From the NCBI GenBank assembly GCA_016617785.1, contig JADILM010000012.1:496001-560000 (forward strand): a DNA stretch of 64,000 bases. The letters are read 5' to 3'. Under the pieces are notes generated by a model. That model was not told where the DNA came from. It did not search any database and worked only from the letters and a program-made list of their open reading frames with translations. This DNA is from Sporobolomyces roseus (taxonomy: Eukaryota > Basidiomycota > Microbotryomycetes > Sporidiobolales > Sporidiobolaceae). Position 1 is the stretch's first letter. Each line of letters begins with the position of its first letter. A program made the translations under genes and the position numbers. Shown one piece after another: positions 47,862 to 64,000 of this stretch.

Positions 47862-49179
47862 ATGTTTGTCAAAATCAAGGTAAGCTCCCGCCTGAAGTCC
47901 TCACTCTTCTTCAAACAATTGATTGACTTGCTTACCCTCCTTATCTCCCACCTACCTTGTTCAACAGACTCATACTGGTAAAATGGCAAGTCGTCCATCT
48001 CATACAGAACATGAAGAAGTGAGAATTAGACAATGAATCCATCTCTTCGACTTTACTAAATCGTTCGTTTCTTCATTCTACAGGCTTATTTCGAAGTCAG
48101 ACCTACTACTGCCGTACGTAACGTGGTTTAGCTTCTGTTCTAGTAGACACGGAGGAGTGGACTTGAGCTCTCTTGCTCGAGGGAAGGGAAAAGTGCAGAG
48201 TGATGGGATACGCAATCGCATCGCGCTGACGACCTCGATCGTGTTGACGTGAATAGATCGATCAAATCAAGATTCTCATTCAGCTCAAAGCAGGAGTGCC
48301 CCTCGACCAACAGGAACTCCTTCTCGACGGAAAAAAGTGAGTTTCGCTTTGCACTCACCTCCTCAGCACTCGCCAAAGCTGACATGTTTGCCGTCGATCC
48401 TGATGATAGATTGTACGATGGATGTACTGCTAGCGATTATGACATGAAAGAGGGGGATACACTCGTACTCCTGATGAAGATTCACCTCTACATGAAGGTA
48501 AGCTCGACTCCCATTCATCTCATCCAATTGACTGACTCGACTGACTCGACTGGCTCCTTTTTCTCGCTTCCTGCTGAATATACAGACTACGACTGGCAAG
48601 ACGGTGAGTTTAGCTCAATCTTTCGCTGCGAGTTGACGGACCACGAACTGACTCTTGCCCTTCCCTTCCTTCACCTTCTCTCCGCTTCTCTTGTTCTGCG
48701 TTTGTCGCACAATCTCCTCGTTGAATCTATGCGATAGATTACCCTCGAATGTCAGAGCAACACCACTGTATGTTCACTTCCTCTCGTTCTCACTTCGGAC
48801 GAAAGGTCGACTCGTTCGCATCTTTGATCTGACGAACTCGAGTCGATTTCGGGACACAGATCAATCAAGTCAAGTGTCTCATTGAAGATAAAGAGGGAAT
48901 CCCTCCCGATCAACAACGTCTCATTTACAATGGGTGGCAGGAAGTTCGGTTTGTCCTAGTAAGACTCAGTACAGCAGCTGACATTTCAGGGCATCGAGTT
49001 GTCGTAGGTTGGAAGACGGCCGCACTCTCAGTGACTACAACATCCAAACCAAATCGACGATTCAGCTCGTTATCAGGCTTCGTGGTTGCGCTTGCGGATG
49101 CGGATTGTACCCTCCTTGGGCTGATGATAACATCGTTGTCAAGAGTGAAGATGGAGTCGCAGTAGCTAGTCAAGCTTGA
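47862..49179 (+). CDS. UBL-1: fused double ubiquitin-like protein with Cys-rich tail
   Basis: Short exons. Unit 1: [64 protein letters not shown]. Unit 2: [68 protein letters not shown]. The tail continues [14 protein letters not shown] and ends VASQA at 49179. Unit 1 has no RLRGG and runs straight into unit 2, so no standard processing site separates them. Unit 2 has GC where ubiquitin has the terminal GG. Intron 2 seems to use a GC donor (ATG|GCAAGT). The donor after LIYNG is ambiguous. Unit 2 is clearly a ubiquitin descendant. Function unknown; normal conjugation through a C-terminal GG looks impossible. Confidence 0.8.
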
Positions 49180-49453
49180 GAGAGGAGGGGGGAGGGGAGA
49201 AAGGAATAGTAACGCTTGAAGTTTTGTCAACTCAGTGATTTTACCTTTTGGCCTTCCATTTTTGAAGAGAGCAGCGCACTGCGAATTTTCTGATGACGAC
49301 GAGCACTTGATCATCCATGATTTCGAACTTTTCGCGAAACCCTTTCAGATTTCGAACAAGGCGAAAAATTGCCCTTGTCCTTCTTCCTCTCTTTTTTTTC
49401 CTTTGATCCTTCTGTCTTTTCTTCATTGTCACGACGGTAGCTCGACATACAAC

Positions 49454-50186
49454 ATGCAAATCTTCCCAATCTATACCAAGGTCAGTTTCTGCCTAGGCTT
49501 TTCCCTCAGCGTTTGCCGCTCTCCGGTACTCACCGATTCGATCCTTTCCTCACTTGAACAGAACCTCACTGGCAAGACCGTAAGCTACCGTATCTCTCTG
49601 TATACAAGTACTCGGCCCAGCTAGGCTATCATGTACTTGCTTATCGCTGAATACCAGCTGACTCTGTGTGCTCACACCTCAACGAACAAATTTCTGATTT
49701 GCTTCACTCGACCATGAATTGCGCAGATCACAATCGAGGTCACTAGGATGACTACGGTGAGTCTACTGCAGAGGCAACATTCCGTTTTCTATTACCGGGA
49801 GAAGGGATCGGTTCAATCGAAACGAGCTCGTATTGAACAGCTCTCTGCCTAATGATTGTAGATTAGCCGCATGAAAGCTATGATTCAAAAAAGAGGGAAT
49901 CCCTCCTGATCAGCAAAGGCTCATCTTCGCCGGAACGATGTCAGTCATTCCTTCGAGTTTTGCCTCTAGGGAGTTGAAGAAGCTCATGTCTGACTTTGAG
50001 AGCCTTGTCGATAGCTTGGAGGACGACCACACCGCAAGTGACTACAACCTCGAGTACGGAGACACGATTCACATCGTCTTGACTCTTCGCGGATGCGCTT
50101 GCGGCTGTGGCCTCTATCCTCCTTGGGTCGACGAGACGACGGCTGTCAAGAGCGTAGATGGAGTCGCCGTAACAGCTTCAGCTTGA
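49454..50186 (+). pseudogene. UBL-2: single ubiquitin-like gene with Cys-rich tail, frameshifted
   Basis: Exons MQIFPIYTK, NLTGKT, ITIEVTRMTT, then SRMKAMIQ. An A-run at about 49886-49892 then breaks the frame just before what would read [14 protein letters not shown], and a TGA follows. After the shift the next exon is open: [38 protein letters not shown], ending at 50186. The tail is conserved with UBL-1, -4 and -5, so decay is recent or the shift is a sequence error. Confidence 0.65.
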
Positions 50187-50482
50187 ATTTGAGGGGAACG
50201 GAAAGGGAGGAAAAGGAAAGGAAACGAGACGAAACGCTTGCGAAATTTTGTCAAAGTCGTAGAATGATTTCTGTTCACTTTCGCTTAGCTCTCCAAGACA
50301 GACATATCGAGATCAAATCGACTGAGCAACGTTTAGAGAGACGAATCTGCGAAAGCTTGTTTGCGAATTCTGTCGCCTCAAACTTGCGAAATTTCTCTCG
50401 AGTCTCCTTTTCCCTCTTTCCATCAACCTCGTTTCCTCTTTCCGCTTCTTTCCTCTCGCGCCCTCTCCTTCCTTCTCTCAAT

Positions 50483-51152
50483 ATGCAAATCAAGATCAAG
50501 GTAAGCACCCTAGCTCTCCTTCTCCTGCCCTTCCAAAACCCACTTTACTGATCAACATCCCATGTCGCCGCTACAGACTCTCACTGGTAAAGAGGTAAGC
50601 TCTACACGCTACTAGAGCTATAATTCAGCTACTGTGACACTCCTCCAGCCCTCTAGAGGACGTACTGACCTTACTCTTTCAACTGATTCCTCATCATTCA
50701 ATCTCATCCGATCTCGTCTCACGCGTACAATTGAGTATAGATCGAGCTAGACATTGAACCAGGCTACACCGTACGCTCCTTCTTGCCTTTCCCTTCCCCT
50801 TATTTTCCACGCTCTCAGCGGGTGGAGGTTCCCGCTCCTATCCCCTCCCTTCCCTCCTTCTCTCCGTTTTTGTCAAGCTGACCGTATTAATCGATTTGTG
50901 AGATGAGTAGGTTGAAAAAATCAAAGGAGTTTTGGAAGAGAAAGAAGGAATCCCTCCGGCTCAACAACGATTGATTTACTTGGGAAAAGCTATGTATGTC
51001 TCGTCTTCCCTACTCCCCTTCACGCTGGGGGTAAGTGAGCTGATTAAGGAGGAGAGGAATGTAGGGAGGACACGAAAACGGCGGCGGAATTGAAAGTTGA
51101 GGGAGGTTCGACACTTCATTTAGTACTCTCACTACGAGGTGGAAAGCAATAG
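50483..51152 (+). CDS. RUB1: NEDD8/RUB1 ubiquitin-like modifier
   Basis: Exons encode [50 protein letters not shown], then [14 protein letters not shown] and [14 protein letters not shown], ending at 51152. The sequence IKIKTLTGKEIELDIEP, the Ala of KTAAELKV and [10 protein letters not shown] distinguish NEDD8 from ubiquitin. After processing of the last two residues (KQ) the GG end is attached to cullins to activate SCF-type ligases. The GG is intact here, unlike in its neighbours. Intron positions after codons 6, 12 and 22 equal those of UBL-1, UBL-2 and UBL-4. Confidence 0.92.
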
Positions 51153-62456: not shown

Positions 62457-62797
62457 ACGAAGAAAGAAGGCGGGAAGTTCGAATTGCTTTTCTCTCTCTA
62501 GGGATTGGCAATGGGAATGCGAGGCGAGCGAGTGTTCATCTAGTATTGCTTCTGAAGTCGGTGAATCGGAACTACGATGAACGAATGCGAGACCAAGGGT
62601 CGATCCTTCGCTCAATCCGATCTCTTGAGCAGTCAGTGAGTCATGATCGGGATGCCAATCTGTTCAGTATGGACAGTTCAGTATGGTCCATCGGTCTGCC
62701 TCTCTCGTTGAATCTGGAGAAAATCAATGAGAAAAAGGAAAATTGGCAAATTCGACTCTGACAAGCGCTACTACTTCTGTCGTTCCTTGATCCTCCT
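62457..62797. other. Intergenic between convergent LARP7-like gene and UBL-4
   Basis: About 340 bp; no gene. Near 62660-62690 a short repeat (gttcagtatggaca then gttcagtatggtcca) occurs. Confidence 0.4.
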
Positions 62798-63549
62798 TCA
62801 AGCCGAAGCTGCTACAGCGACGCCTTCTTCACTTTTGACAGCGGTCGTCTCGTCGACCCAGGGAGGATAGAGGCCACAGCCGCACGCACAACCTGAAAGT
62901 TTGAGGACAAGATGGAGAGTCGAACCGGTGTTGAGGTTGTAGTGACTCGCAGTGTGCGTATCACTCTCGAACCTTTCAATACAAATGTACGCAAGGTCTT
63001 CAGATGTCTATGCGACAAAAACGAGCGAAAAGTGATACTCACTGGGTTCCAGCGAAAATGAGACGTTGCTGGTCGGGAGGAATCCCTTCGGAGTCCTGAA
63101 TCATCGCTTTCATCTCGCCTACCTATATCCATCGCTCCAAGTCCTCGTCAGCTACTTGATTGAGATACCCACTTTGACCCGAACGCTAAATCCTCGCTTT
63201 CGGCAATAGAGAAAGACGACATTCTCTCCCTCCCTAAAGCGTGTAGCGTAAGCGTAGACCTACAGTAGTATCATCGGTGATCCTGAACTCTACCTGTGCG
63301 ATTCGCGGTGACAGGGAGAGGGTTGAGACGGTGCACAAGAACAAAAGTTGTCAGTCGGTTCAGTCAACCGATAGCAGCAAGCTGATCGGCAAGATAGCAG
63401 CAGCGTATGGATAGAATGAACGAGAGCTCACCGTTTTGCCAGTGAGAGTCTGATGGAAGGCGACAAGGAAAGAGTCAGTCGAATCAGCGAAAGATGACAA
63501 GGCGAACAAGGGAGAGACTTGCCTTCATATAGATAGGGAAGAGCTGCAT
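62798..63549 (-). CDS. UBL-4: ubiquitin-like protein with Cys-rich tail
   Basis: Exons encode [52 protein letters not shown], then [28 protein letters not shown], and the tail [13 protein letters not shown] ending VAVAASA at 62798. All frames join, about 108 residues. Closest to UBL-2 (same MQxFPIYxK start and VDETTAVKS tail). The ubiquitin C-terminus RLRGG has become KLSGC, so classical activation by an E1 at a GG end is excluded. The first intron appears to use a GC donor (AAG|GCAAGT). Function unknown. Confidence 0.8.
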
Positions 63550-63830
63550 AGTGATCAGACAGATGAGTAGAGGCGAGAACGGAGAAGTGAGGTAAATTGA
63601 GGTGAGAAGAGGAAAGAAGAAGAGCGAAATCTCCATTTTCAGCGAAATTTGAGAAAAGGTTTCGCAAAGATATCGAGAATCGGAGCAGTGTCGCGAACCA
63701 GTAGCCATGAAGAAGTGATATCTCTCTCTCTCTCTGGATGTCAACGAAATCAACGAGTAGAAAAGGAAAATCGACAAATTCAACAAATCTTCGACAAGCG
63801 TTACTATTCATTTCTCTCCTCTGATTCCGT

Positions 63831-64000
63831 TCAAGCTTGACTAGCTACTGCGACTCCATCTTCACTCTTGACGACCACGCTCTCATCAGCCCAAGGAGGG
63901 TACATTCCGCATCCACAGGCACAGCCGCGAAGCCTGAGAACGAGATGAAGGAGTGATTCCTTTTGAATGTTGTAGTCGGAAAGGGTACGACCGTCTTCGA
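63831..64000 (-). CDS. UBL-5: ubiquitin-like protein with Cys-rich tail (5' part beyond window)
   Basis: Only the last exon is in the window: [20 protein letters not shown] then [19 protein letters not shown] and an end VASQA at 63831. This is the closest of the set to real ubiquitin (SDYNIQKES is identical to it) yet it has RLRGC plus the tail. Paired with UBL-1 by its [19 protein letters not shown] ending. Confidence 0.8.

What the first reader, a model, noticed from the sequence alone, without database searches (positions are those of the whole stretch)
47862..64000. Ubiquitin-like family in which terminal RLRGG is replaced by RLRGC plus a conserved Cys-rich tail
Four loci (UBL-1, -2, -4, -5) keep the ubiquitin fold sequence, with [18 protein letters not shown] and SDYNIQ-type cores. 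In all four Gly76 is Cys and translation continues into ACGCG-[LM]YPPW-[AV]D and about 20 more residues ending VAxxA. Conservation of the tail across copies that differ elsewhere implies selection on it. The CACGC block could bind metal, be lipidated, form disulfides or be a novel processing site. Established knowledge: ubiquitin needs a free C-terminal Gly-Gly for E1 activation. What the tail does is inference. I know of no described family with this tail.
Basis: partly seen in the sequence, partly recalled or inferred. Interest (0 to 1): 0.9.

Follow-up and report, generated by a model that had tools for sequence, protein, structure and literature searches.

The report
Ubiquitin-like proteins with conserved cysteine tail
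A yeast genome carries a small family of ubiquitin look-alikes whose normal attachment end is replaced by a strongly conserved cysteine-rich tail, so they probably act through that tail and not by being attached to other proteins in the usual way; relatives turn up in Sporobolomyces yeasts, labelled only as hypothetical proteins.

Summary
Four genes (A, B, D, E) encode ubiquitin-like domains in which Gly76 is Cys and the frame runs on into CACGCG[LM]YPPW plus 19 residues and a stop. The genome holds exactly these four tails, beside polyubiquitins, ubiquitin-ribosomal fusions and NEDD8 with normal GG ends.

The 11-residue cysteine block is under very strong protein-level selection (ML omega 0.015, p=8e-8); A and D differ there at 9 of 33 bases with no amino-acid change. 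Selection on the last 19 residues is weaker (omega 0.35, p=0.02).

Relatives exist in Sporobolomyces roseus, S. salmoneus and two unnamed sequences; in S. roseus the core has drifted to 37-50% identity with the others while the tail keeps 60-80%, one relative (P0005, 40%) aside. No Pfam, NCBIfam or PDB match for the tail passed a curated cut-off, and my paper searches found no description.

Best reading: non-conjugatable ubiquitin-fold adaptors working through thiol chemistry at the tail, like UBL3/MUB but not members. The mechanism is inferred. Corrections: A is a fused double domain; B carries a frameshift; 'RLRGC' is literal only in A and E.

The parts
47862..49179 (+). Gene A: fused double ubiquitin-like protein, 180 aa; exons 47862-47879, 47968-47985, 48084-48113, 48257-48336, 48410-48497, 48586-48603, 48738-48767, 48860-48948, 49008-49179
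   Evidence: Spliced by eye; Pfam ubiquitin, 2 stretches, E=6.8e-38. The donor of the last intron is ambiguous.
49087..49179 (+). Tail of A ([30 protein letters not shown], stop)
49454..50186 (+). Gene B: single ubiquitin-like domain; exons 49454-49480, 49562-49579, 49727-49756, 49862-49939 (frameshifted), 50015-50186
   Evidence: frame broken in exon 4
50094..50186 (+). Tail of B ([30 protein letters not shown], stop)
50483..51152 (+). Gene C: NEDD8/Rub1-like, ends SLRGGKQ; neighbour without the tail; exons 50483-50500, 50577-50594, 50741-50770, 50911-50993, 51065-51152
   Evidence: Pfam ubiquitin E=6.2e-24; the name NEDD8 is by recall of the family sequence
62798..63549 (-). Gene D: single ubiquitin-like domain, 109 aa; exons 63523-63549, 63432-63449, 63264-63293, 63043-63122, 62798-62972
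   Evidence: Pfam ubiquitin E=1.3e-20
62798..62890 (-). Tail of D ([30 protein letters not shown], stop)
63831..64000 (-). Gene E, last exon as far as the window reaches; whole gene 105 aa in L009 exons 1572-1589, 1468-1485, 1290-1319, 1075-1154, 831-1002 (minus)
63831..63923 (-). Tail of E ([30 protein letters not shown], stop)
44776..50187 (+). Left arm of the inverted duplication (AT-hook-like gene X, A, B)
   Evidence: matching stretches 88%, 73% and 77% identical to the right arm
62797..64000 (-). Right arm of the inverted duplication inside the window (D, part of E); it continues to window-equivalent 67663 with E and gene X'
   Evidence: (joined sequence)

Best explanation
[quoted passage not shown] Shown: the genes, the substitution, the exceptional protein-level conservation of [11 protein letters not shown][LM]-[YF]-P-P, and relatives in Sporobolomyces. 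Inferred: the fold still docks non-covalently on ubiquitin-system proteins through the retained Ile44/Val70 face, and the three-cysteine tail is a flexible thiol arm that ties the protein to a membrane (S-acylation) or to a partner (mixed disulfide), in the way UBL3/MUB uses its C-terminal cysteines. It thereby localises or restrains ubiquitin enzymes and is not itself conjugated through a terminal glycine.
For: Cys after Gly75 in 8 of 8 sequences (A2, B, D, E, P0001, P0002, P0003, P0005). CACGCG 8 of 8, PP 8 of 8, Tyr 7 of 8, Trp 7 of 8. Ile44 and Val70 kept in 8 of 8, while Lys48 is kept in 2 of 8 and Arg72 in 4 of 8, which fits docking without conjugation or chain building. Block omega 0.015. 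A1 and A2 are joined without LRGG. Tail modelled as disordered, pLDDT under 50 for residues 109-144 of P0003 (weak model). Precedent: UBL3 lacks GG, uses C-terminal Cys for membrane attachment and a disulfide-type modification (PMC6158211, passages); MUB binds E2s non-covalently with an unstructured tethering tail (PMC4996978, passages).
Against: No CAAX box: all four proteins end in -QA or -SA. The tail around the cysteines is acidic, not basic, and nothing supplies a first membrane contact for S-acylation. His68 is kept in only 4 of 8, and Leu8 in 2 of the 4 copies that could be read there (B and D, not A2 and E), so the docking face is not intact. No expression, localisation or binding data exist. 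B is frameshifted. The only structure model has mean pLDDT 49.
Confidence: 0.4

Rival explanations
1. The CxCxC tail binds a metal ion (Cu(I) or Zn(II)), like a minimal metallothionein arm, perhaps across a dimer.
For: Three cysteines spaced by Ala and Gly, invariant in 8 of 8; C-x-C spacing recalls fungal metallothioneins (recalled, not tested). The acidic flank is compatible.
Against: Only three cysteines, so a full site needs a partner; it does not explain the equally conserved YPPW or LRG; no Pfam or PDB metal-binding match for the tail.
Confidence: 0.2
2. A genome-encoded counterpart of UBB+1 or of the laboratory Ub(G76C): the fold enters E2 or deubiquitinase active sites and Cys76 forms a reversible disulfide with the catalytic cysteine, giving redox control of the ubiquitin system.
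For: Leu73 and Gly75 kept in 8 of 8 and Arg74 in 7 of 8 even where the core has drifted; these residues line enzyme channels and are not needed for the fold (established knowledge). Ub(G76C) is used to make disulfide-linked E2-Ub (PMC4734694 and PMC7667886, passages). UBB+1 (G76Y plus 19 residues) blocks E1 activation and inhibits some deubiquitinases, and UCH-L3/YUH1 can cut off its extension (PMC8032880, passages). UCH-family matches lie at two places in this genome.
Against: Does not explain conservation of the second and third Cys and of YPPW; E2-contacting Arg72 varies; no redox or binding data.
Confidence: 0.15
3. The ubiquitin fold is a carrier and the tail is a peptide released by a ubiquitin C-terminal hydrolase, i.e. 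a peptide or modified-peptide precursor.
For: LRG is kept just before the tail; UCH-type enzymes are present and can cleave after a non-Gly residue 76 (PMC8032880, passages).
Against: Peptide-precursor families usually keep the leader and vary the core, the reverse of what is seen; no maturation genes were recognised nearby among the few ORFs scanned.
Confidence: 0.1
4. The tail is not functional protein: pseudogenes, an unspliced intron, or conservation caused by gene conversion or an RNA element.
For: B is frameshifted. Synonymous differences are lower in the tail than in the core for A/E and B/D (Fisher p=0.051 and 0.067), as gene conversion would give; A and E share the 3' part of the tail almost letter for letter, and a short 3' UTR motif.
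Against: Across A/D, E/D, E/B and A/B the block is almost purely synonymously diverged; relatives in other genomes keep it; no splice donor shared by all four.
Confidence: 0.05

Closest known systems
UBL3 / MUB (membrane-anchored ubiquitin-fold proteins)
   Same: Ubiquitin fold, no C-terminal Gly-Gly, cysteines at a flexible C-terminus (PMC6158211, PMC4996978; passages).
   Different: These proteins lack a CAAX box, have three internal tail cysteines followed by about 24 residues, and their cores are far nearer to ubiquitin itself (E: 61 of 75 identical).
UBB+1 (human misframed ubiquitin)
   Same: Gly76 replaced and a C-terminal extension, hence no E1 activation (PMC8032880, passages).
   Different: UBB+1 comes from faulty transcripts and has a 19-residue tail; here the tail is genomic, 30 residues, conserved between paralogues and species, and cysteine-rich.
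Ubiquitin-ribosomal protein fusions (S27a, L40)
   Same: Ubiquitin unit followed by a C-terminal extension; both occur normally in this genome.
   Different: The fusions keep LRGG and are cut after it; here the second Gly is Cys and the tail matches no known domain at a curated cut-off.
NEDD8/Rub1
   Same: Adjacent gene C shares intron positions after codons 6, 12 and 22 with the tailed genes.
   Different: NEDD8 keeps GG; tailed copy E is 61/75 identical to ubiquitin but 37/75 to gene C.

Membership tests
Ubiquitin family (fold) | Match to Pfam PF00240 above the gathering score | tested here: met
   A, D and C pass; P0001, P0002, P0003 and P0005 pass. The E fragment of 55 aa scores 23.1 against a cut-off of 25.4; whole E and B were not scanned.
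Conjugatable ubiquitin / ubiquitin-like modifier | C-terminal Gly-Gly, free or exposed by processing | tested here: not met
   Gly75 followed by Cys in 8 of 8.
UBL3/MUB | C-terminal CAAX prenylation box | tested here: not met
   A, B, D and E end in -SQA, -ASA, -ASA, -SQA; P0001, P0002 and P0003 end -SQA, -GQA, -AGA. P0005 runs on past the tail in its frame and its true end is unknown.
UBL3/MUB | Match to Rad60-SLD_2 (PF13881), the Pfam family I associate with UBL3 by recall | tested here: not met
   Not listed for A or D (E up to 0.1); P0003 13 bits against a cut-off of 23. A genome-wide search for this family gave nothing, but its controls did not ring either, so absence of a true UBL3 here is not shown.
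UBL3/MUB | Membrane localisation or thiol-linked modification | not testable with these tools
   Needs experiments.
NEDD8/Rub1 | Sequence nearer to NEDD8 than to ubiquitin, with GG end | tested here: not met
   Tailed cores are nearer to ubiquitin than to gene C in 8 of 8 (29 against 26 of 65 for P0002, the closest call) and lack GG.
Metallothionein-like | Cys-rich metal cluster | not testable with these tools
   Three Cys only; no family match.

The most novel reading that the evidence does not exclude
A natural, selected Ub(G76C): a family in which the ubiquitin fold and its LRG tail deliver a cysteine, plus two more, into E2 or deubiquitinase active sites to form reversible disulfides, so that yeasts of this lineage evolved a genome-encoded, redox-switched covalent regulator of ubiquitin enzymes, possibly matured by a ubiquitin C-terminal hydrolase.
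Probability: 0.12. Interest if true: 0.95.

Novelty: new variant of a known kind. Interest (0 to 1): 0.72.

Why it matters
Ubiquitin is among the most conserved proteins, and its C-terminal Gly-Gly is the basis of its chemistry. A family that keeps the fold, gives up Gly76 and puts strong selection on a cysteine tail would show a second evolutionary use of the ubiquitin C-terminus, after UBL3, and would give a compact, testable system in a non-model yeast: three cysteines, one short motif, several natural variants. If the tail engages active-site thiols it would be a natural counterpart of a tool biochemists build by hand. Even on the more ordinary reading it adds an undescribed non-conjugating ubiquitin-like family.

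Tried and rejected
Unspliced-intron explanation: rejected, because the region after codon 75 has no GT donor shared by the four copies (GGT in A and D, GGA in B, GGC in E) and two NCBI gene models read through.

Origin of the tail from another gene: a search of the genome with the tail found only the four copies. One polyubiquitin ends RLRGGC-stop, but its downstream sequence did not look like the tail by eye; not pursued.

Tail in viral or prokaryotic collections: 0 exact matches to the degenerate DNA pattern in viral contigs and genome contigs.

First protein search with the D tail found nothing; A's tail found P0001; a query of all four tails joined gave 5 proteins at E up to 10 among 3303 candidates. 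P0004 was dropped before the counts (E=4.9, no ubiquitin match precomputed, only ACACGCGLY shared); P0005 was kept although E=9.9, because it has the ubiquitin domain and [10 protein letters not shown]0005's tail diverges after the PP.

Structure: one job on P0003 with three relatives, mean pLDDT 49; too weak for a fold search, so none was made.

Weak Pfam and NCBIfam matches of the four joined tails (NUP210-like 19.5 bits against 27; others weaker) are below cut-off and span artificial joins; rejected.

Inverted duplication as a special feature of this locus: two 100-kb control stretches also hold inverted pairs, so it looks common in this genome.

A genome search for PF13881 was uninformative. 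The 3' UTR motif TAGTARCGCTTG occurs 6 times genome-wide, 3 of them here, against 5 for the reversed control; no meaning is claimed.

In my notes the C4 and C11 ubiquitin fusions were labelled the wrong way round: the sequences fit S27a on C4 and L40 on C11 (names by recall); the intron list calls the C4 gene L40 and should read S27a.
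Full report
What is there. The window lies at C12:496001-560000 of an unnamed 22.4 Mb genome in 15 contigs. Four ubiquitin-like genes carry the same kind of tail. A (+, 47862-49179) has nine exons and encodes two fused domains, 180 aa. B (+, 49454-50186) has one domain and a frameshift in exon 4. D (-, 63549-62798) has one domain, 109 aa. E (-, from L009) has one domain, 105 aa, with only its last exon in the window. 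18 of 20 introns are GT-AG and 2 are GC-AG. Gene C (50483-51152) is NEDD8-like and ends in a normal GG followed by KQ. The genome also has two polyubiquitins and two ubiquitin-ribosomal fusions with LRGG, so the tailed genes are additions and not the cell's ubiquitin.

The tail. After Gly75 all four read Cys, then ACGCG[LM]YPPW[AV]D and so on, 30 residues before TGA. A protein search and a DNA pattern search of the whole genome each return exactly these four places, the latter with 0 for its reversed control.

Selection. On the four copies, with the tree ((A,E),(B,D)) that the duplication implies, maximum-likelihood omega is 0.149 for the 30 tail codons (p=5.2e-7 against omega 1), 0.015 for the first 11 (p=7.9e-8), 0.345 for the remaining 19 (p=0.02), and 0.224 for the 26 core codons of the same exon (p=9.1e-6; one D codon without a partner removed). 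The script is my own codon model with a weak penalty on kappa. A simpler randomisation agrees: for A/D, E/D, E/B and A/B, 0 of 20,000 random placements of the observed base changes gave as few amino-acid changes in the block. For A/E and B/D the block test gave 0.048 and 0.011. The last 19 residues alone were not significant for A/B (0.13) and A/E (0.41). Synonymous change is lower in the tail than in the core within A/E and B/D (p=0.051 and 0.067), which hints at gene conversion within pairs and lowers the number of independent comparisons.

Relatives. Of the three protein searches, one with the D tail found nothing, one with the A tail found P0001, and one with four joined tails found five proteins at E up to 10 among 3303 candidates. 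P0001 is an E orthologue from another strain or species: core 50/54, tail 28/30 identical, while the intron read through in its frame differs at 6 of 24 residues (my reading). The tool gives no source for it, which I cannot explain, since its letters are not E's. P0002 is a hypothetical protein of Sporobolomyces roseus, P0003 an uncharacterised protein of S. salmoneus. P0005 is unnamed; E=9.9, kept because it has the ubiquitin domain and [10 protein letters not shown]0004 was dropped. Among the 28 pairs of eight sequences, tail identity exceeds core identity in 21, ties in 1 and is lower in 6; five of those 6 involve P0005 and the sixth is P0001/P0003. That the window is from a Sporobolomyces-like yeast is inferred from these hits only.

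Residues. Over the same eight (A's second domain for A), Cys76, Leu73, Gly75, Ile44 and Val70 are kept in 8 of 8, Arg74 in 7, Arg72 and His68 in 4, Lys48 and Lys63 in 2. The Gly76 column of that table is an alignment artefact; read directly, the residue is Cys in all. Loss of Gly76 rules out E1 activation by established knowledge (for UBB+1, PMC8032880, passages).

Anatomy and origin. The tailed genes share introns after codons 6, 12 and 22 with gene C; the fourth is in codon 49, phase 2, against codon 50, phase 2, in C. The ubiquitin genes share only the codon-12 intron. Yet the sequence is ubiquitin-like: E is 61/75 identical to ubiquitin and 37/75 to gene C. A tandem origin beside NEDD8 with later conversion by ubiquitin, or an old ubiquitin copy, would both fit; not resolved. 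The set then doubled in an inverted duplication with gene X.

Mechanism. The committed reading is a non-conjugatable ubiquitin-fold adaptor with a thiol arm, after the precedent of UBL3/MUB (passages of PMC6158211 and PMC4996978). Steps shown: gene structure by DNA, the substitution, selection, relatives. Steps inferred: docking, thiol linkage, effect on ubiquitin enzymes. The bolder reading, a natural Ub(G76C) that forms disulfides in enzyme active sites, rests on the retained LxLRG, on the laboratory use of Ub(G76C) (passages of PMC4734694 and PMC7667886) and on UCH-family genes at two places. Metal binding and peptide release remain open.

Literature. Ten paper searches were made. None of the listings showed a description of this tail; 'RLRGC' with 'ubiquitin' gave 0 papers. 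The library covers only open-licence papers. Only passages of five papers were seen.

Verdict. The finding stands and is stronger than stated, because the tail is conserved across species and is most constrained exactly at the cysteine block. It is a new variant of a known kind (ubiquitin-like proteins); the mechanism is undecided.

Noticed in passing
window 18236-26843 and 37240-45068; 44776-50187 and 62797-67663; 70123-72281 and 76910-79079 (the last pair beyond the window, in window-equivalent coordinates): Three imperfect inverted duplications (about 71-92% identical stretches) in 93 kb; inverted pairs also occur in two 100-kb control stretches, so they seem common in this genome.
   Followed up: partly
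window 51518-54196 (+): Intact 892-aa frame with reverse transcriptase and RNase H domains (Pfam RVT_1, RNase_H), a retroelement-like gene between the tailed genes.
   Followed up: no
window 46036-47382 (+) and L009:1990-3396 (-): Paired genes X and X' with AT-hook-like GRGRPRK stretches, next to A and E; only sub-cut-off Pfam matches.
   Followed up: partly
window 47862-49179: Gene A joins two ubiquitin-like domains with the LRGG junction lost, so it cannot be split like polyubiquitin.
   Followed up: partly
window 47986 and 63522: GC-AG introns in genes A (after exon 2) and D (after exon 1).
   Followed up: no
L013 (C8 polyubiquitin): One of the two polyubiquitin genes ends RLRGGC-stop, the other RLRGGQ-stop.
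   Followed up: no
window 50483-51152 and tailed genes: NEDD8-like gene and tailed genes share three intron positions not shared by the ubiquitin genes, although the tailed proteins resemble ubiquitin more.
   Followed up: partly
window 20012-21256 (+) and 42628-43959 (-): Near-duplicate frames that look like a branched-chain dehydrogenase E2 (name by recall), one in each arm of the first inverted duplication.
   Followed up: no
L021-L030 (C1:2041168-2063897): Tandem array of about 5.7-kb units more than 99% identical in the control stretch.
   Followed up: no
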